64,000 bases of DNA from Flexistipes sp. (GCF_036172515.1 NZ_JAXKVW010000005.1:62001-126000); one strand, 5' to 3'; counted from the first letter of the stretch, positions 38,629-47,940 are shown. Program-made: numbers and translations. Notes: generated by a model from the sequence alone, not told the origin.

Positions 38629-38705
38629 AATGCTCCTTTAGATTTTAATATACAGACAGGATGAATAAAGTCAAAAAATTTGTTAAGTTTGTGAAATGAA
38701 TGGGA

Positions 38706-38779
38706 TCGGGATGGCGGGATTTGAACCCACGACCTCTGGTACCCGAAACCAGCGCGCTACCAAACTGCGCTACATCCCG
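38706..38779 (-). tRNA. tRNA-Pro (anticodon CGG)
   Basis: Cloverleaf on the minus strand with acceptor CGGGATG / CATCCCG, discriminator A, and anticodon loop TTCGGGT giving CGG. CCA is not encoded. Confidence 0.95.
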
Positions 38780-38824
38780 AAGTACTGTTATGTATAACAA
38801 TTTTAATAATTTTCCAAGTAAAAA

Positions 38825-39722: not shown

Positions 39723-39808
39723 GCCTGGGTGGTGGAACTGGTAGACACGCAAGACTAAGGATCTTGTGGCCGTAATCGGCTGTGGGGGTTCGAGTCCCCC
39801 CTCAGGCA
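39723..39808 (+). tRNA. tRNA-Leu (anticodon AAG), integration site of the island
   Basis: Class II cloverleaf with acceptor GCCTGGG / CTCAGGC, discriminator A, long variable arm and anticodon stem CAAGA/TCTTG. The loop CTAAGGA gives the anticodon AAG; A at position 34 is uncommon for a bacterial leucine tRNA, where GAG is usual. The 3' end from 39791 is the left att repeat of the island, so the tRNA remains intact after integration. Confidence 0.92.
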
Positions 39809-39817
39809 CTATTATTC
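39791..39817 (+). repeat. attL (3' end of tRNA-Leu plus flank)
   Basis: Starts CGAGTCCCCCCTCAGGCACT and continues to ATTC. It matches 46253-46279 except for one T/C difference. Confidence 0.9.
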
Positions 39818-39853
39818 CTCTTTATTACCAATAACTTAATTTTTGGGCTAACC

Positions 39854-41026
39854 TCATTGTGCTATTTTTGTGCTATTTTGGTTTCCGTGATCAAGGCTAA
39901 TCAGTGAACTTATGTTTGGTTTTGCCTGGTTATTTTTTATAAATCTGCCGTATACTCTGAATAACATTTCGAAGCTTGCATGTCCTAATTGACTGCAGAT
40001 AAAATTGATATTATCATCAGCAAGCAAGCTTAGAACGGCATATGTGTGTCTTGCCTGATACATTATTCGGTATTCCAGCCCAAGCCTTTTCAGCATTGGT
40101 TCCCAAGCGTATTCTCTTATTGCTGTTGAACTGTCATAAGGTTTTCCGTACTGATTAATAAATACGAAATCACTTTTCATGAAAGAATATTTTTTGTGTA
40201 CTTTTAATGCCTGCAAAACTTCATCCGTCAATACCACATGGCGCTTTGAACCGACTGTTTTTACCGTGTCCAGATCGCCGCTTGTCATCCGTTCTCTCAC
40301 ATGATAAGTCCCTCTGTTAAAATCCACGTTCTGCCATTTCATGGCGAGGACTTCGCCCATCCGCATACCTGTCATGAAAAGTACGGCGTAAAAAGCATAA
40401 AAGCGGTGATAGTGTTTGTAAGCATAGTTTAGTATCAAGGATACTTCTTCGGCTGTGAACGGTTCTATTTCCGATTTTTCCACTCGAAGATTTTTTACCC
40501 TTTTTGAAGGATTTTCTTCTATGTATTCCCTATCATAAGCCAGTTCAAGTATGCGTCTAACCGCTATAAGTTTATTGTTTATGGTTTTGTTATTGAGTTC
40601 CTTGTCCATCAGGTGGATAATGTAGTCTTCAACATCAATACGCTTAATCTTATGAACATACATATCACCGAAAAATTCAACAGCATATTTCATGGAACTC
40701 TTATAGCCCTTCAAAGTTGTATTTTTCAGTCTTAATTTCTTCTGCCTTTTGTACCATTCTTCGGCAAGTTCAGAGAACTTTATCCTCGGTACCTCTTCTT
40801 CAGGCACTTCTTTCTGGATACCTAATTTCTCCAGATTCGGTGAATCAGGAAACCACTTCAGATAGTCAAACGTGTCTTCTCTTAACTGTCTTTTCAGTCT
40901 TTTAAAGTCAAATCTGGCTTCTTCAATGTTTTCTTTTGTATTCTCCAAACCCGTTGATTCCCTGACCTGTCTCTCTTTATAGTTAAATCGGTACCATATT
41001 GTTTTGCCGCGTACAAATAGACCCAT
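39854..41026 (-). CDS. Tyrosine recombinase (integrase) of the island
   Basis: The 390-residue protein has an N-terminal arm-binding region (about 1-65), a SAM-like core-binding domain (about 85-175) and a catalytic domain with Arg in MTGMRMGEVLA, the MYQARHTYA box, GHAS and the nucleophile Tyr in YGRFI. The box has Tyr at the usual HxLRH histidine position, a variant common in tRNA-targeting integrases. A GGAGGT site precedes the ATG. Its end lies 37 bases from attL, and two TGTGCTATTTT words overlap its stop codon. Confidence 0.95.
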   Translation of the reverse strand: MGLFVRGKTIWYRFNYKERQVRESTGLENTKENIEEARFDFKRLKRQLREDTFDYLKWFPDSPNLEKLGIQKEVPEEEVPRIKFSELAEEWYKRQKKLRLKNTTLKGYKSSMKYAVEFFGDMYVHKIKRIDVEDYIIHLMDKELNNKTINNKLIAVRRILELAYDREYIEENPSKRVKNLRVEKSEIEPFTAEEVSLILNYAYKHYHRFYAFYAVLFMTGMRMGEVLAMKWQNVDFNRGTYHVRERMTSGDLDTVKTVGSKRHVVLTDEVLQALKVHKKYSFMKSDFVFINQYGKPYDSSTAIREYAWEPMLKRLGLEYRIMYQARHTYAVLSLLADDNINFICSQLGHASFEMLFRVYGRFIKNNQAKPNISSLISLDHGNQNSTKIAQ

Positions 41027-41038
41027 ACCGACCTCCAG

Positions 41039-41443
41039 CTACACCTGAAGGCCAAAATGTTGGAGTAGGGCATTTTTGCGGAATAACAGTTTTCGGCCAA
41101 CTCTTATGTAATGTTTGCCTTCTCCCAGTTTGCCTTGGGATTTGAGATTTCTGAGATGCTGCTGGTGTACTTTGAAGAATTTTGCAGCTTCACCTGTAGT
41201 AAGTAATTCGTCATTGTCGTCATTAAATCTTCTTTCATACTGTTTGATAATCAGTTGCAGTTTCAGAATCTCTTCGGTAACGTCTGCTAATGTTCTTCTG
41301 CCGTTAACTACTGTTTCCGCATAATACCTTTGTGCTGAACTGAAATCAGCACTTCCTGATCCCTGCGTGCCACCTATTGAGTTTTCAAACAACTCATCTT
41401 CTTTCTTACCGGATTTCTCTGAATAAATGCAAGTGTTTTTCAT
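41039..41443 (-). CDS. Excisionase-like MerR/HTH_17 DNA-binding protein
   Basis: The 134-residue protein has a low-complexity N-terminus, a coiled helix near residue 60-75 and a C-terminal winged HTH (LLTTGEAAKFFKVHQQHLRN to FRKNALLQHF), the form used by excisionases. An AAGGAGG site precedes the ATG. The integrase starts 12 bases after its stop, so it probably controls direction of recombination and perhaps integrase expression. Confidence 0.8.
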   Translation of the reverse strand: MKNTCIYSEKSGKKEDELFENSIGGTQGSGSADFSSAQRYYAETVVNGRRTLADVTEEILKLQLIIKQYERRFNDDNDELLTTGEAAKFFKVHQQHLRNLKSQGKLGEGKHYIRVGRKLLFRKNALLQHFGLQV

Positions 41444-41527
41444 AAAGCGCCCTCCTTAATCATCAAAAAAGAGAGGGGTCAATCTTTTTCTTTTTTTTAT
41501 TGGGAGTATGGATCAGGACATTAAAAA

Positions 41528-41938
41528 CTATGTTGGGGGTAAAATTTTACCGTATTTTCTTCTCCAGATTTTAATATTATTATATTCTTCTTTTGTAACA
41601 GTTATTTTTTTATTTCCGTCTACTGATTGCATTATTTTTGGCACATCATAAACAAGTTCAGTCTTACAGATAGCTTTAAATAGTTTATTGACCGCGTAGA
41701 AATTATCTTTCAGGTAAGACTTTGAGATACTTCCCTTCCAGCATTCATTCTTAAGGTGGTTATAATAAGCATTTTTGTGGTCATAGTTTATTTTATCCAA
41801 ATGTTTTATGTCAGGATAATTGTCCTGCATGAATTCTAAAAAATGTCTTATTAGTCGGTTTACTTGTTTCATATTTGAGTTCGAACCAGTTATTCTGTGT
41901 TTCCTGCAAAATTCTTCAAAAAGTTTATTAACACTCAT
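41528..41938 (-). CDS. Stand-alone SAM-like (core-binding) recombinase domain protein
   Basis: The 136-residue protein resembles only the N-terminal DNA-binding half of a tyrosine recombinase (KQVNRLIRHFLEFMQDNYPD; SISKSYLKDNFYAVNKLFKA). No catalytic domain follows in any frame before the next gene. It may be an accessory DNA-binding factor or a truncated recombinase. It overlaps the next recombinase by 11 bases. Confidence 0.65.
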   Translation of the reverse strand: MSVNKLFEEFCRKHRITGSNSNMKQVNRLIRHFLEFMQDNYPDIKHLDKINYDHKNAYYNHLKNECWKGSISKSYLKDNFYAVNKLFKAICKTELVYDVPKIMQSVDGNKKITVTKEEYNNIKIWRRKYGKILPPT

Positions 41939-42896
41939 TATCGCCCCCTATATAAAAATTGGTAATGTCAACACGATGATGACCTAATTCCTCACTTATA
42001 ATAAGACGTATCTGATAATCCTTTTCTTTATCAATAAAAGTTTCTCCGTTGCTTTTAACCGGCGGTTCGTATCCTGTCAGTTCTTTATATCTGGATTGTG
42101 CATAATGATGTCTTTCACCGTGAAAATTGTATTTAAGCCCGATCTCTTTATTGAATTCCTTGACCGTGTTGTAAGCAAAGTGTCGCCATTCCTTGAAACT
42201 CATGCCGTCAGGTATTAATGATGTCTTTAGATTGGATTCTTTACGAAAATCTTTTACCTCACGTACCAGTTCCCTCTGTTTTTCTGTGGACTGCACTCTT
42301 CGAAGCTGGCCTCCTTTTGTGCCCTTTCTTATATTTAAATTACCATTTCTTTGCAGTTCTTTGCCTGAAAATAAGGCCGACTCTTTAAATCGTAACCCGA
42401 TCCCCCTCTGTAACTCAACTTGCAGTCTGAGGGCTTCATAACGGGCGTCACCGTGATTAATATAACTCTTTGTAAGAAAGTCCGAGAATTTATTGTGTAT
42501 ATCTGCTGACACACTTTTATCAATATTGTTAAAACGATGACCCCGGTTCAGACCGTATTCTTTTGCTGAAATCTTAAGATCATCACGATAATAATGAGTA
42601 AAGACTGTATTAAGTGAAGATATAATATTTGTAGTGTGCCCGGCTGATATTTCACCATTTTCCCGTTTTTCTAATAGCCTGTGTGCAAAATCGGCCATTT
42701 GCAACGAATCAAGGCGGGATATATTTTTCAGACCATATTCTTCTTTGGCGAAATTAGCCAGCATTCGGATAGATTGGGCAGATTTCTGTATTGTTTCTTC
42801 GTTGCCCGACTTTACAACCTGCATGGCAAGGCGGAAGCTTGCTGCTTTTCGAGATAAATCTTTTTCCCCGATAAAATTACGCTTTATTTTTGACAT
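41928..42896 (-). CDS. Second tyrosine recombinase (Integrase_1-like)
   Basis: The start at 42896 has an AGGG site; an upstream ATG at 42935 adds 13 residues. The 322-residue protein has an N-terminal SAM-like domain and a catalytic domain with Arg in GIGLRFKESALF, HGERHHYAQSRY and GHHRVDITNFYIG, so the R-HxxR-H-Y set appears complete. It resembles integrase-domain proteins of integrative elements that are not the site-specific integrase themselves. Its role alongside the tRNA integrase is unclear. Confidence 0.75.
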   Translation of the reverse strand: MSKIKRNFIGEKDLSRKAASFRLAMQVVKSGNEETIQKSAQSIRMLANFAKEEYGLKNISRLDSLQMADFAHRLLEKRENGEISAGHTTNIISSLNTVFTHYYRDDLKISAKEYGLNRGHRFNNIDKSVSADIHNKFSDFLTKSYINHGDARYEALRLQVELQRGIGLRFKESALFSGKELQRNGNLNIRKGTKGGQLRRVQSTEKQRELVREVKDFRKESNLKTSLIPDGMSFKEWRHFAYNTVKEFNKEIGLKYNFHGERHHYAQSRYKELTGYEPPVKSNGETFIDKEKDYQIRLIISEELGHHRVDITNFYIGGDNEC

Positions 42897-43275
42897 AACA
42901 GCCCTCCCTTCATTTATGTGAAGAAAAGGAGTCAAGGAAATACTAAATTAATTAAGAAAAGTAGGGTCATCACCCTGCTGATATTGTCTGTGAAGGTCAT
43001 ATGCAGATTATACGCTGCCCAGTAAATTTATATTAGCGATATCCTCCTGGTTTCGGGCACCAAGAAAGCCTGTATAATCTATATATGAACCCGTCTCCGG
43101 GATTATAAAGGGAAGTCAGACATTATCATGAATGGCGCAGCAACCGCCTGGCATCATATCCGGACACGTAATAAAAAAACGGCCGTATACAATGACATGA
43201 TAATGAATTTTCTGTTTTTTCTGTAAAACAAAAATCGGCGAAAAGACTTGTAAACAAAAGGTTTTTGCGTATTCC

Positions 43276-43311
43276 TTTTTTGCATTCACTTTTGAAAGTG
43301 AACGCAAAAAA
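43276..43311. promoter_or_regulatory. 36-base imperfect palindrome
   Basis: Arms TTTTTTGC and GCAAAAAA enclose TTCACTTT-TG-AAAGTGAA, with one mismatch in 17 pairs. T precedes and A follows the stem on both strands, so it is not an intrinsic terminator. It may be an operator, a recombination-protein site or an origin-like cruciform. Confidence 0.6.
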
Positions 43312-43359
43312 TATCTGCTGCACTCATTCCGGTAATAAGGAATAGTTGCAGCTTCGCTG

Positions 43360-43381
43360 TTCAATCAATATATTGATTGAA
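43360..43381. promoter_or_regulatory. 22-base perfect palindrome, likely operator of the restriction-modification operon
   Basis: Half-site TTCAATCAATA is followed directly by its exact reverse complement. The right half overlaps the proposed -35 element at 43377-43382, as expected for a repressor or autoregulator. Confidence 0.55.
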
Positions 43382-43405
43382 CTTTATCCAATGATAAACT
43401 AATAT
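43377..43405 (+). promoter_or_regulatory. Candidate promoter of the vsr-methyltransferase-endonuclease operon
   Basis: TTGAAC (43377-43382) and TAATAT (43400-43405) are 17 bases apart. Confidence 0.4.
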
Positions 43406-43483
43406 TATAATTATAGTTCAGTGATAGAATTTGATATTATGTTAAGACATTTTTATAATTAGTCAAGTTGTAGTGATAAATTA

Positions 43484-43912
43484 ATGAAGGGTGTGGATAG
43501 ATTGGATAAGATATCTAAAGAGAAAAGAAGTGAAAACATGAAGAAAATAAAGTCAAAGAACACTGAACCAGAACTTCTCGCAAGAAAGGCATTATGGAAA
43601 ATGGGATACAGATACCGCCTTCATTATAAAGAATTACCAGGAAATCCTGATATTGTTTTAACTAAACAAAAGACCGCAATATTTGTGCATGGATGTTTTT
43701 GGCATAGGCATGAAGGATGTATAAATGCATCAAGACCGAAATCTAATTCTGAATATTGGGAAAATAAAATAAAATCAAACTTAGATAGAGATAAAAGAAA
43801 TCAGTCACTTCTTAGAGAAATGGGCTGGAGAGTGCTTGTTGTCTGGGAGTGTCAACTGAAAAAAGATATAGATTTTAACATTTCTTTTTTAGAGAGATTG
43901 TTAAATGAATAA
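43484..43912 (+). CDS. vsr: Very short patch repair (Vsr) endonuclease
   Basis: The 142-residue protein is a clear Vsr: RSENMKKIKSKNTEPELLAR, GYRYRLHYKELPGNPDIVL, and HGCFWHRHEGC with zinc ligands. Vsr nicks beside T:G mismatches created by deamination of 5-methylcytosine at the sites of its partner methyltransferase. An internal TTG at 43502 with better upstream AAGG is an alternative start. It overlaps the methyltransferase gene by eight bases. Confidence 0.95.
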   Translation: MKGVDRLDKISKEKRSENMKKIKSKNTEPELLARKALWKMGYRYRLHYKELPGNPDIVLTKQKTAIFVHGCFWHRHEGCINASRPKSNSEYWENKIKSNLDRDKRNQSLLREMGWRVLVVWECQLKKDIDFNISFLERLLNE

Positions 43913-45059
43913 AATATCTATTTTTTCTTTCTTTTCTGGGTGCGGTTTACTGGATCTCGGATTTGAAGATACAGGATATGATATAGTATATGTTAATGAG
44001 TATTTTCAGCCATTTATATATGCATATAAATATTCAAGATTAAAAATGGGATACAAAAAACCGATTTACGGGTACTCAGATAATAGTATAGTCAATTTAC
44101 TGTCTCAACATGAAATATCAATATTATCGAATAACATTAATCTGGAAAGAATAAAAGGGAATATAGTAGGGTTTATTGGTGGTCCTCCTTGTCCAGATTT
44201 TTCGGTAGGTGGAAGAAACAGAGGTAAAGATGGAGAGAATGGTAAACTGACTGAAACATACATTGATTTAACTTGTAAATTAAAACCTGATTTTTTATTG
44301 TTCGAAAACGTAAAAGGGCTGTGGAATACAAAAAAGCACAGAGAATTTTATGAAAAAGTTAAAACAAAATTGTATGATGCAGGTTATGTAATAATGGAAA
44401 AACTAGTAAATGCCATAGAATATGGTGTCCCACAAGATAGAGATAGAATTATAATGTTTGCTATACAAAAGCATTTTCTATCTAATAGTAACGATATTAA
44501 TAATTTTAACTGGAATATAGACAAAAAATTTGATAAAGAGGAAATATTGCAATTGAACTGGCCTACTATAAATCCATTCCAAACAAATATAAGCAAACCT
44601 AAAGATGTCCCTTTTGAACTGACTGTAAAATACTGGTTTGATAAAAACAGTACATATAACCATCAAAATAGCCAAGATCAATTTAAGCCCAAAGCAGGCT
44701 TACCGAAGTTTCAGTCTATACCCGAAGGAGATGTGTCAAAGAAATCATATAAAAGATTGCATAGATATAGATATTCACCTACTGCAGCTTATGGCAACAA
44801 TGAAGTACATCTTCATCCAACAGAAGCAAGGAGAATAAGTGTTGCTGAAGCATTGGCTATACAAAGTGTTCCTGCATGTTTTGAATTGCCGTTAGATATG
44901 ACTTTGACTAATAAATTCAAGACTGTTGGCAATGGGGTACCTTATCTTTTATCTAGGGGAATAGCCAATTCAATTAAAGTTTTTATAAATGGACTAAACC
45001 CTCAATTTATAAGGAGTAAAGATGATATTAACAGCTTCCAATATTACAAATGCTGTTAA
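43905..45059 (+). CDS. DNA (cytosine-5) methyltransferase
   Basis: The 384-residue protein has motif I FSFFSGCGLLDLGFED, motif IV GGPPCPDFSVGG with the catalytic Cys, motif VI ENVKGL, motif VIII EYGVPQDRDRIIMF, a target-recognition region of about 100 residues, motif IX RRISVAEALAIQ and motif X VGNGVPYLLSRGIA. Motif IV has PCP instead of the usual PCQ, a recognised variant. It should protect the recognition site of the endonuclease encoded next, with which it overlaps by 38 bases. Confidence 0.95.
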   Translation: MNKISIFSFFSGCGLLDLGFEDTGYDIVYVNEYFQPFIYAYKYSRLKMGYKKPIYGYSDNSIVNLLSQHEISILSNNINLERIKGNIVGFIGGPPCPDFSVGGRNRGKDGENGKLTETYIDLTCKLKPDFLLFENVKGLWNTKKHREFYEKVKTKLYDAGYVIMEKLVNAIEYGVPQDRDRIIMFAIQKHFLSNSNDINNFNWNIDKKFDKEEILQLNWPTINPFQTNISKPKDVPFELTVKYWFDKNSTYNHQNSQDQFKPKAGLPKFQSIPEGDVSKKSYKRLHRYRYSPTAAYGNNEVHLHPTEARRISVAEALAIQSVPACFELPLDMTLTNKFKTVGNGVPYLLSRGIANSIKVFINGLNPQFIRSKDDINSFQYYKCC

Positions 45060-46104
45060 TCAATTAGATAAAAACAGGTTTTATAATTACATAAACCCAC
45101 AGAATAAAGGTCTGATTAAAATTGTACATATTAATTTGCCCGAGGGTCCTATAATTATTAAACGTTATGATCCTTCTAAAGGCGGATCTTTAGATCAAGC
45201 GAAAGAAGAATCTATTTCATCTAACTTGATATGGAGAGTTGCTAACGCTATAAAAGAAGGAGTCCCCATCAATATTGATAGAGTTCTCGGGGCAAGCTAT
45301 AATACTCGTTCTGTATTGGAAAGTTTATTGGCTTATACCTCTAATTTTTATGTTACATATCCCGGTAGAATTGAAATGATTGATTCGTACTCAAAGATAA
45401 AGAAAGGACACAAACATATTGTATGGTTGCCAGAGACCCCACATGAACTAGGTAAAATATGCGAAATTGATACTGAACAGGTGATTTCTGAAATACCTTC
45501 TCACCAAGCAGTTTATGAATCCTTAGTAGTTCCATATAATAATCAAGATAAAAATGAACTTGATATTGAAATAAAAAGGAGGCATGCCCAGATTCAAGTT
45601 GCATTAATACACATTGGTATTCAACTAGGCTTTAGAACATGGATTGCACAAAATGACAAAGGTATTATTTACAAAGATAAAAAAATAGGTGAAATTAATG
45701 GAGTTGTGCAGTCACTAGAAAATGAGAAGCTTTTAATGGGTTATAGTGATGCTGCAAAGGCCGCCTTATTAATAGACTGTATATGGTTTAAAAATAGCAG
45801 GCTAATGCCTGCTATCATGGAAATTGAATGTACGACTGGTATACGAAGTGGATTAACTCGTATGAAAACTTTCTCTGATTTGTTTCCTCCTTTTCCCACA
45901 AGATATGTTATTGTTGCCCCAGATGAAGATAAACCAAAGTTTATGCAAGAAGCATCTAAAAAACAATTTAGAGATTTATATCCGAAATTTTTCCCTTTCT
46001 CTGCCGTAGAAGAACTTTATGCTTTATGCCAAAGAAGAAATATAAAAGGGATTACAGAAGAATTCTTGGATAGTTTTATCGAAGATCCGAGTTTCAATAG
46101 TTAA
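45022..46104 (+). CDS. Putative type II restriction endonuclease of unrecognised family
   Basis: The start is fixed by AAGGAG six bases before the ATG, which makes the 38-base overlap with the methyltransferase real. I recognise no named family in the 360 residues. A region near 250-268 (LIDCIWFK, then AIMEIECTTG) has the spacing of a PD-(D/E)xK-type site with ExE, and RRHAQIQVALIHIGIQLGFRTWI precedes it. Position in the operon is the main argument. The gene is followed by 150 bases to attR. Confidence 0.7.
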   Translation: MILTASNITNAVNQLDKNRFYNYINPQNKGLIKIVHINLPEGPIIIKRYDPSKGGSLDQAKEESISSNLIWRVANAIKEGVPINIDRVLGASYNTRSVLESLLAYTSNFYVTYPGRIEMIDSYSKIKKGHKHIVWLPETPHELGKICEIDTEQVISEIPSHQAVYESLVVPYNNQDKNELDIEIKRRHAQIQVALIHIGIQLGFRTWIAQNDKGIIYKDKKIGEINGVVQSLENEKLLMGYSDAAKAALLIDCIWFKNSRLMPAIMEIECTTGIRSGLTRMKTFSDLFPPFPTRYVIVAPDEDKPKFMQEASKKQFRDLYPKFFPFSAVEELYALCQRRNIKGITEEFLDSFIEDPSFNS

Positions 46105-46252
46105 AAATTTTTGGCCTTCAGGCGTATGTGTTATTTTTGTGCTATTTTCCATTATTTTTGGATTATATCCAATTATACCGACCGTTCATAAATTACTGTT
46201 AAATATAATTGTGCTAAATTTTAAATGATTGATAAATAAGGATTTTCGCCTG

Positions 46253-46279
46253 CGAGTCCCCCCTCAGGCACTACTATTC
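46253..46279 (+). repeat. attR (repeat of the tRNA-Leu 3' end)
   Basis: CGAGTCCCCCCTCAGGCACT and following bases repeat the tRNA-Leu end at 39791. The sequence beyond it (46281-46317) also resembles the flank of attL, including TTTAATTTTTGTGCTATTTT, up to the stop codon of recJ. Confidence 0.9.
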
Positions 46280-46311
46280 TTTATGATCAATTATTTAATT
46301 TTTGTGCTATT

Positions 46312-47940
46312 TTATGATATTATTTTCACCTGACAGTATTCACCACCATTGTATCTGTTACACTCGATATATCCGAATAGTTGTTCCGGATTAATTTCAG
46401 ATTTTGCAGAGTTAAATCGAATACCCCTCACTTTTTTACCATTTACATTCCCGAGCTCAAACATCAGATGTTCACCGTTTTTGCCAACTATGCGCTGATT
46501 TTCTATTACAGGTTCCTTTATACGAAATACTGGCTTTCTGTTGCCTTCGCCGAATGGTTCGAGCAATTCCAGAGCTTTTGCCAAATTGACATTGATATCA
46601 TCAACAGTGACGTCTAAATCGTAGTCTTTCTTTTTTATAAAAACTTCTTCTTTGCATTCTGAGCATACAATTTCATTAATTTTATTTCTGAATTTATCTA
46701 TATTTTCCCTTGTTACAGACAAACCGGCAGCTTTAGTGTGTCCGCCGAATTTTTCAAGTAAGCCGGGGCTGTCTCTATCAATTTTTGAAAGTATTTCAAA
46801 CATATCAATTCCGTCAATTGAGCGTGCTGAACCTGTTACTCCTTCATTCAGCCTGTCTTCGCCGCCAAAAATAATAACGGGACGATAGTATTTCTCCATT
46901 ATCCTGGAAGCTACTATTCCGATTATCCCTTTTACCCAGTGCGGCTGATATACAACGATTACTCTGTTTTTACCGTATTTGTCTTTTTCAATAATTTTTA
47001 CAGCTTCGTTAAAGGTGATTTCGCATAAGTCCTGTCTGTCCTTGTTTTTATTATCAAGTTCTTCAGCCAGTTTCAGATTATTTGCATAATTATCACCTGT
47101 AAGCAGTTCCAGAGCAGTATCAGCGACATCAATGCGCCCGCTTGCATTAATCCTTGGGCCAAGTACAAAACCGTGGTGATAAGATTTGATTTTTTTATCT
47201 TTTAATCTGCTTATTTCAACCAATGCTTCAATGCCGGGTGAAGGTGTGCTGTTTATTACGTCAAGGCCGTATTTTACAAGAATTCTGTTGTCTCCTGTCA
47301 GTGGTACAATATCCGCCACGGTGGTCAGCCCTACAAGATCCAGGTATTTTTTTAAATTTATATCTTTTCTGTTTAAAATTCGCCTGATTATCTGGAGCAG
47401 TTTAAAGACAACTCCGCATCCGCATAAGCTGTAATCCGGCTCATTTATTTTTTCGGGGTTTATTTTCGGGTTTATAATAAAATCAGCTTCAGGCTGTCCA
47501 TCCTTTGGCAGATGATGGTCTGTGACAATTACTTTTATGTTATGATTTTTTAAATATTCTACTTCTTTAACAGAGGTTATACCGCAGTCAACAGTAATAA
47601 CCATATCTGCTCCGTTTTTTGCCATCTGTCGGGCAGTATCAGGCGTTAATCCGTAGCCGTTTTCATATCTGCTGGGTATAAGTGTTTGATAATTTTCAAA
47701 GCCTAATTCTTTAAAAAAATTAACAAGGAGTGCCGCGGAGCAAACACCGTCTACATCATAGTCTCCGTAAATATAAATCTTATTGTTCTGCCTGATAGTG
47801 TCTGCAATCAATTCGCCGGCACCTTGAGGGACTATATTTAAAGGATCGGATAAACCTTTCAGACTCGGTTGTAAAAATTTTTGTTTATTCAACACTCCTC
47901 TGTAAGTAAGTATTTTATGTACTACAGGATGTATTGACAA
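46312..47940 (-). CDS. recJ: Single-stranded-DNA-specific exonuclease RecJ
   Basis: The 542-residue protein has the DHH-family motifs YGDYDVDGVCSAALL, VDCGITSVKE and TDHHLPKDG, and a DHHA1 domain with GPRINASGRI and GGHTKAAGLS. RecJ degrades single-stranded DNA 5'-3' in recombination and mismatch repair. The start used is a TTG with a weak GGGG site; the frame stays open upstream without a better start, so the N-terminus is uncertain. The stop codon borders the island's right flank. Confidence 0.93.
   Translation of the reverse strand: MSIHPVVHKILTYRGVLNKQKFLQPSLKGLSDPLNIVPQGAGELIADTIRQNNKIYIYGDYDVDGVCSAALLVNFFKELGFENYQTLIPSRYENGYGLTPDTARQMAKNGADMVITVDCGITSVKEVEYLKNHNIKVIVTDHHLPKDGQPEADFIINPKINPEKINEPDYSLCGCGVVFKLLQIIRRILNRKDINLKKYLDLVGLTTVADIVPLTGDNRILVKYGLDVINSTPSPGIEALVEISRLKDKKIKSYHHGFVLGPRINASGRIDVADTALELLTGDNYANNLKLAEELDNKNKDRQDLCEITFNEAVKIIEKDKYGKNRVIVVYQPHWVKGIIGIVASRIMEKYYRPVIIFGGEDRLNEGVTGSARSIDGIDMFEILSKIDRDSPGLLEKFGGHTKAAGLSVTRENIDKFRNKINEIVCSECKEEVFIKKKDYDLDVTVDDINVNLAKALELLEPFGEGNRKPVFRIKEPVIENQRIVGKNGEHLMFELGNVNGKKVRGIRFNSAKSEINPEQLFGYIECNRYNGGEYCQVKIIS

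What the first reader, a model, noticed from the sequence alone, without database searches (positions are those of the whole stretch)
39791..46279. Compact island integrated at tRNA-Leu with exact att boundaries and a restriction-modification cargo
The 3' end of tRNA-Leu is repeated at both ends (21 identical bases, one difference in the next six). The integrase, excisionase-like gene, second recombinase pair and a Vsr/m5C methyltransferase/endonuclease operon fill the space with no conjugation or phage genes. The boundaries are read directly from sequence; the mobility model follows known tRNA-targeting integrative elements.
Basis: partly seen in the sequence, partly recalled or inferred. Interest (0 to 1): 0.7.

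Follow-up and report, generated by a model that had tools for sequence, protein, structure and literature searches.

The report
Tiny SGI1-like mobilizable island, restriction cargo
A 6.5-kb DNA island sits in a leucine-tRNA gene of a Deferribacterales bacterium (probably Flexistipes); besides a restriction-modification system it carries what looks like a minimal relative of the conjugation 'ticket' of Salmonella Genomic Island 1 (a recombinase-like relaxase pair plus a conserved structured RNA and origin region), so it is probably a hitchhiker on other elements' conjugation machinery.

Summary
In detail: the tRNA-Leu 3' end is repeated 6,462 bp apart (21 identical bases; the imperfect repeat extends to about 58 bp) and flanks int, xis, a recombinase-like pair and a Vsr/m5C-MTase/REase operon. 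The interpretation misses the main point. The 'second recombinase pair' is homologous to MpsA/MpsB, the tyrosine-recombinase-like relaxase module of SGI1-family islands: 32% identity to a published-family MpsA, all catalytic residues invariant, a separate clade from integrases. The 587-bp gap upstream of mpsA holds a conserved inverted-repeat region (oriT candidate) and a covarying structured RNA with a terminator, in the place where SGI1 has oriT and its essential sgm-sRNA. A covariance model finds this RNA 12 times in 61 genomes: ten beside mpsA, two in cas-less CRISPR-array elements. Sister islands (5.4-5.5 kb where both ends are known) sit at other tRNAs, with KAP NTPase or type I R-M beside the module in this genome. 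The host also carries an F-type/MOBH ICE, the helper class used by SGI1. Verdict: a minimal integrative mobilizable element, a new variant of the SGI1/MpsAB kind outside Proteobacteria. Transfer, nicking and transcription are inferred, not shown.

The parts
39723..39809 (+). tRNA-Leu(AAG), integration target
   Evidence: ARAGORN; conserved with anticodon AAG in 19 genomes of the order inspected
39791..39817 (+). attL core repeat (21 identical + 5/6); imperfect extension to 39850
39858..39879 (+). tandem TGTGCTATTTT, probable Int arm-type sites inside attL
   Evidence: only at island ends in 64 kb
39854..41026 (-). int: tyrosine integrase with arm-binding domain, 390 aa
   Evidence: Pfam PF00589, PF12167
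41039..41443 (-). xis-like HTH_17 excisionase, 134 aa
   Evidence: PF12728; TIGR01764 below cut-off
41528..41938 (-). mpsB-like, SAM/core-binding domain only, 136 aa
   Evidence: PF13102; follows mpsA in the Deferribacterales mpsA islands and in most proteobacterial loci
41928..42896 (-). mpsA-like tyrosine-recombinase-like relaxase, 322 aa (ATG start; open TTG frame to 42935)
   Evidence: PF12835; homology to SGI1-type MpsA; catalytic R169, K194, H259, R262, H263, H306, Y315; fold like XerH/IntI/Tn1549 Int
42954..42981 (-). conserved terminator-like hairpin with TGAT loop and T-run
   Evidence: covarying stem in 9 elements
43005..43082 (-). core of conserved structured RNA (stem P2 + hairpin P3, invariant TCGCTAA), sgm-sRNA-like position
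   Evidence: covariation 0.509 vs 0.231, 0/500 shuffles; model R1 genome-wide
43121..43225 (-). candidate oriT: covarying 10-bp inverted repeat (43196-43205 / 43121-43130) around GC-rich GGCGGTTGCTGCGCC (43134-43148), next to ACAGAAAAAACAGAAAA
   Evidence: conserved block, arm-pairing test
43282..43303 (-). conserved hairpin GTTCACTTT/AAAGTGAATGC
43484..43912 (+). vsr mismatch endonuclease, cargo
   Evidence: TIGR00632 above cut-off
43905..45059 (+). m5C DNA methyltransferase, cargo
   Evidence: PF00145; 55% identity to an MTase next to a Cfr10I/Bse634I-family REase
45022..46104 (+). type II restriction endonuclease, cargo
   Evidence: PADLOC PDLC03534, E 1.5e-122
46127..46148 (+). arm-type-like tandem inside attR
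46253..46279 (+). attR core repeat; imperfect extension to 46309
   Evidence: right flank conserved in G001 from this base
46312..47940 (-). recJ-like gene, chromosomal flank (not part of the island)
   Evidence: 94% identical in G001

Best explanation
The island is a minimal integrative and mobilizable element (IME). Shown: it is bounded by copies of the tRNA-Leu 3' end, encodes its own integrase and excisionase-like protein, and carries an MpsA/MpsB-homologous pair with a conserved, covarying noncoding module upstream of mpsA. Inferred: Int/Xis excise it as a circle; MpsA (catalytic Tyr315), helped by MpsB, nicks the oriT at about 43121-43225, possibly needing the adjacent structured RNA as SGI1 needs sgm-sRNA; a co-resident conjugative element, such as the F-type/MOBH ICE at tRNA-Thr in the same genome, provides the mating pore and coupling protein; in the recipient Int restores the tRNA. 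The Vsr/MTase/REase operon is exchangeable defence cargo between oriT and attR.
For: att boundaries; int/xis. MpsA homology: profile comparison with Pseudomonadota MpsA-like proteins 100% probability, E 1.9e-50; 32% identity over the length to P0001, which is 95% identical to the MpsA of IEPplInd1, a published SGI1-like element (PMC8409611 Table 1), and has R162/H247/R250/H251/Y319 at the residue numbers reported for SGI1 MpsA (PMC6414798). Other hits lie in species listed as SGI1-RE hosts. Tree: Deferribacterales MpsA 98/100, apart from integrases 100/99. The mpsB-like gene follows mpsA. Upstream module: covarying RNA, genome-wide 12 hits in 61 genomes, ten next to mpsA including an mpsA remnant not used in training. 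Gene order int-xis-mpsB-mpsA-oriT-variable cargo-attR equals SGI1-REs (PMC9035990). Sister islands at tRNA-Pro with 21-bp repeats (L036) and tRNA-Gly (L037; L094 with a 24-bp repeat). Candidate helper: TraC_F, TraE/K/B/V/H/N/G, TraD and TraI_2 (MOBH) in the same genome.
Against: No transfer, nicking, circle or transcript data. MpsA identity to SGI1-type proteins is only about 30%, and a tyrosine recombinase can act as a plain recombinase. The RNA shows no recognizable sequence match in proteobacterial MpsA loci, so its equivalence to sgm-sRNA rests on position and orientation. SGI1's rep, traN/G/H and sgaCD are absent. No exact empty site found.
Confidence: 0.8

Rival explanations
1. An ordinary tRNA-targeting R-M island; the second pair is just a spare site-specific recombinase/resolvase with no role in conjugation.
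For: The proteins are tyrosine-recombinase-like by Pfam and fold.
Against: Specific homology to the genetically proven MpsA/MpsB relaxase pair, with the same gene split and order and a conserved oriT/RNA region upstream; tree apart from integrases.
Confidence: 0.12
2. A decayed IME, no longer mobile, kept for its restriction-modification system.
For: att copies have diverged beyond the 21-bp core; MpsA phylogeny follows host families, suggesting long residence.
Against: All seven ORFs are intact, MpsA catalytic residues are kept, and the attL/attR core is still identical over 21 bp.
Confidence: 0.3
3. The conserved noncoding block is a regulatory RNA or replication origin rather than an oriT + mobilization sRNA.
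For: A terminator and hairpins suggest a transcript; SGI1 itself also has a replicon.
Against: It is tied to mpsA in 10 of 12 cases; the other two copies are in small int-bearing elements without mpsA, as expected of a cis-acting transfer site used in trans. No Rep gene found in the island.
Confidence: 0.2

Closest known systems
SGI1-family integrative mobilizable elements (SGI1, SGI1-REs, dusA/yicC islands)
   Same: Gene order int-xis...mpsB-mpsA-oriT-variable cargo-attR; homologous MpsA; SAM-like MpsB; RNA and oriT between mpsA and cargo; some carry R-M cargo (PMC9035990, PMC8409611, PMC9299015)
   Different: 6.5 kb against tens of kb (e.g. 22.8-37.1 kb for the islands of PMC8409611); tRNA targets instead of trmE/dusA/yicC; no rep, traN/G/H, sgaCD; MpsA only ~30% identical; no shared RNA sequence; Deferribacterales instead of Gammaproteobacteria
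MobK (pIGRK) and TcpM (pCW3) tyrosine-recombinase-like relaxases
   Same: Tyrosine-recombinase-derived relaxase (PMC8152469)
   Different: No separate MpsB partner described for them; sequence relation not tested here
tRNA-targeting ICEs/IMEs with arm-domain tyrosine integrases
   Same: Integration at a tRNA 3' end, arm-type repeats, Xis
   Different: From general knowledge, known IMEs mostly use HUH or Rep-type relaxases

Membership tests
Integrative and mobilizable element (IME) | Integrase and defined att ends | tested here: met
Integrative and mobilizable element (IME) | Own relaxase and/or oriT, no mating-pore genes | tested here: inconclusive
   MpsA/B homologs and conserved oriT-like region present, no T4SS genes in the island; activity not tested
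Integrative and mobilizable element (IME) | Transfer with a helper | not testable with these tools
   F-type/MOBH ICE co-resident
MpsA/MpsB-type relaxase module | Homologous MpsA with R, K, HxxRH, H, Y catalytic set | tested here: met
MpsA/MpsB-type relaxase module | Separate MpsB-like SAM-domain protein downstream of mpsA | tested here: met
   similarity between MpsB groups is weak (22-25%)
MpsA/MpsB-type relaxase module | oriT with inverted repeats upstream of mpsA | tested here: inconclusive
   covarying IR region found; nicking untested
MpsA/MpsB-type relaxase module | sRNA encoded between oriT and mpsA, same direction as mpsA | tested here: inconclusive
   covarying RNA-like element in that place; transcription untested, no sequence match to gamma loci
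SGI1 family proper | Backbone rep, traN, traG, sgaC; trmE/dusA/yicC target; IncC control | tested here: not met
   None of these genes in 39791-46279; target is tRNA-Leu
Type II R-M system with Vsr | C5-MTase + REase + Vsr operon | tested here: met
   recognition site not determined

The most novel reading that the evidence does not exclude
RNA-assisted mobilization by tyrosine-recombinase-like relaxases is an old, cross-phylum mechanism. In Deferribacterales it drives a family of very small tRNA-hopping islands, several of them carrying defence genes, and also oriT/RNA-only hitchers, two of which carry CRISPR arrays without cas genes; all depend on mpsAB islands and F-type/MOBH ICEs for transfer.
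Probability: 0.4. Interest if true: 0.82.

Novelty: new variant of a known kind. Interest (0 to 1): 0.62.

Why it matters
MpsAB with its puzzling essential sRNA was described from one lineage of gammaproteobacterial resistance islands. A distant, minimal version with covarying RNA would show which parts are essential, make the RNA's role testable by comparison, and suggest that islands called 'not conjugative' may be mobilizable: several plasmids encoding MpsA-like proteins are typed 'non-mobilizable' in PLSDB. It also shows how defence genes spread on 5-6 kb elements.

Tried and rejected
Single-protein scans of genome contigs and viral contigs found nothing; the alignment query worked. SGI1 itself (AF261825) is not held, and E. 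coli genomes gave no match to a related mpsAB region, so published SGI1-like elements served as reference. Rfam: no credible family (the SNORA13 match is below gathering). VirB4 (PF03135) is absent from the host; the F-type search found the ICE. Shared motifs between the Deferribacterales RNA and gamma mpsA upstream regions: none. Exact empty site: G002's contig ends just past the tRNA; in G008/G015 (same genus) the tRNA-Leu flanks are separated by 12.1 kb against 4.75 kb of unrelated sequence, a variable site but not a clean empty one. REase: no PDB relative and no plasmid relative.

Full report
OBSERVATION. tRNA-Leu(AAG) lies at 39723-39809. Its 3' end recurs at 46253: 21 identical bases and one difference in the next six. 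In 100 Markov-shuffled windows the best match to the 27-mer was 19; the real one is 26, and no other tRNA in the window has a repeat longer than 12 nt. The repeat continues imperfectly to 39850/46309. TGTGCTATTTT, probably an integrase arm-type site, occurs only at 39858, 39869, 46138 and 46303 in 64 kb. The gene content is as described.

SITE IN RELATIVES. The host is in Deferribacterales: same-genus genome G002 has contigs of the same lengths (30,840 and 65,108) as the fetched records of Deferribacteraceae bacterium UBA1873. In G001 the recJ-side flank is 94% identical starting exactly at the repeat, and the tRNA side is conserved to the tRNA end, but ~47.5 kb of other DNA, with its own integrase (36% identical), lies between. 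So the same attB has taken two different insertions. In 19 genomes of the order inspected this tRNA is always AAG; a recognizable integrase lies directly downstream only in the window genome, G001, G008 and G030. A clean empty site was not obtained.

THE 'SECOND RECOMBINASE PAIR'. The 322-aa ORF (41928-42896) has a C-terminal tyrosine-recombinase domain (PF12835) and the overlapping 136-aa ORF has only a SAM/core-binding-like domain. This is the layout of SGI1 MpsA and MpsB, which are essential for SGI1 transfer and proposed to form an atypical relaxase (PMC6414798). The best plasmid hit, a Salmonella protein (P0001), is 32% identical over the length and carries R162, H247, R250, H251 and Y319, the positions reported for SGI1 MpsA. 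P0001 is 95% identical to the MpsA of IEPplInd1, a published SGI1-like element, and the window protein itself matches that MpsA with E 5e-25. Other hits fall in Marinobacter lutaoensis, Idiomarina tyrosinivorans, Rheinheimera nanhaiensis and Pseudohongiella nitratireducens, species listed as SGI1-RE hosts. All catalytic positions are invariant. The AlphaFold model (pLDDT 87) matches XerH, IntI and Tn1549 integrase. In a tree, MpsA-like proteins separate from the islands' integrases (100/99), and the Deferribacterales ones are one clade (98/100) that follows host family. BLASTP finds no similarity between MpsA and the island's own integrase.

THE NONCODING MODULE. Between mpsA and vsr lie 587 bp without a gene. 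DNA similarity to the two sister copies in the same genome continues from mpsB through mpsA to about 43314. Aligning ten upstream regions shows four conserved pieces. (i) A terminator-like hairpin with a TGAT loop whose stem covaries. (ii) An RNA-like core at 43005-43082 with a long-range stem, an inner hairpin and invariant TCGCTAA. (iii) A GC-rich region inside a covarying 10-bp inverted repeat. (iv) A further hairpin. Cognate arms pair better than non-cognate ones (permutation p 5e-5, the resolution limit, for the long stem, the terminator and the inverted repeat; arms were chosen by eye and sequences are related, so p is nominal). On the MAFFT alignment 91.8% of cells pair, with covariation 0.509 against 0.231 +/- 0.033 in shuffles (0/500) and at most 0.13 in slid controls. 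The covariance model found 12 copies in 61 genomes: ten upstream of mpsA, one of them (G016) an mpsA remnant not used in training. In SGI1 the essential sgm-sRNA is encoded between oriT and mpsA and read toward mpsA (PMC9299015): the same place and direction. There is no sequence similarity to gamma loci, so the equivalence is positional.

A FAMILY OF ISLANDS. Copies of the module lie beside tRNA-Pro(TGG), tRNA-Gly(GCC), tRNA-Lys, tRNA-Arg(CCT), tRNA-Ser and tRNA-Leu(AAG) in Deferribacterales. Two have clear att repeats and sizes of 5.5 and 5.4 kb. Cargo seen in this genome besides the present one: a KAP NTPase and a type I R-M system. Integrases differ more than MpsA: 38-42% identity between window and sister integrases against 54-66% for MpsA; some members have an unrelated integrase. 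Integrases of the two tRNA-Gly elements L037 and L090 are 80% identical, as expected if integrase sets the target.

HELPER. The host lacks VirB4 (PF03135) but has an F-type system (TraC, TraE, TraK, TraB, TraV, TraG, TraH, TraN, TraD) with a MOBH-type TraI_2 relaxase in an element beginning at tRNA-Thr(CGT), contig C4 ~94.3 kb, with a related integrase. From general knowledge, IncC plasmids, the helpers of SGI1, are also F-type/MOBH. That this ICE is active or mobilizes the island is inference.

CARGO. Vsr (TIGR00632 above cut-off), a C5 methyltransferase 55% identical to one next to a Cfr10I/Bse634I-family enzyme, and a PADLOC REase_II form one overlapping operon: a type II R-M system with Vsr, which would repair T:G mismatches at deaminated m5C sites (general knowledge). 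The recognition site is unknown.

LIMITS. There is no experimental evidence of excision, transcription, nicking or transfer. The report claims homology and conserved architecture (shown) and the mechanism (inferred, 0.8).

Noticed in passing
L175 5753-10575 and L176 (G008:C1:883645-886188 and 898966-900912): Two elements at tRNA-Gly(GCC) and tRNA-Gly(CCC) carry an integrase, the same RNA/oriT module and a CRISPR array (22 and 14 copies of ATTGGAATTTATGACCTGACTTGAAGGGATTACGAC) but no cas and no mpsAB. These are all copies of this repeat in that genome; G015 has the repeat next to genes that look like a type III (Cmr-like) cas locus by eye. They look like oriT-only hitchers spreading cas-less CRISPR arrays.
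   Followed up: partly
39723-39809: tRNA-Leu with anticodon AAG is the only CUU/CUC-type tRNA-Leu found in this genome (others TAA, TAG, CAA, CAG; no GAG) and is AAG in all 19 genomes of the order inspected: a rare A34 tRNA-Leu, and a single-copy, probably essential att site.
   Followed up: partly
38703-38780: tRNA-Pro(CGG): G001 has a ~5.8-kb insertion (integrase plus transposase-like genes) at its 3' end with a 48-bp overlap of matches, where this window is uninterrupted; the window supplies the empty site.
   Followed up: partly
46299-46313: An arm-type-like TTTTTGTGCTATTTT lies just outside attR and is present with one change in G001: perhaps the scar of an older attL.
   Followed up: no
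G000:C4 from ~94,359 (L159, L160, L156, L157): F-type/MOBH integrative conjugative element at tRNA-Thr(CGT) with ParM-like and methyltransferase/helicase cargo; the right end was not determined.
   Followed up: partly
L098, L100 (pAeme4, pK524-NR) and other small Aeromonas plasmids: MpsA+MpsB-like pairs on plasmids typed 'non-mobilizable' by PLSDB; probably overlooked mobilization modules.
   Followed up: no
L034 10231-16489 (G001): AddA/AddB-like nuclease-helicase genes inside G001's ~47.5-kb insertion; the AddA-like one has no ortholog in the window genome (only a 30% identical paralog).
   Followed up: no
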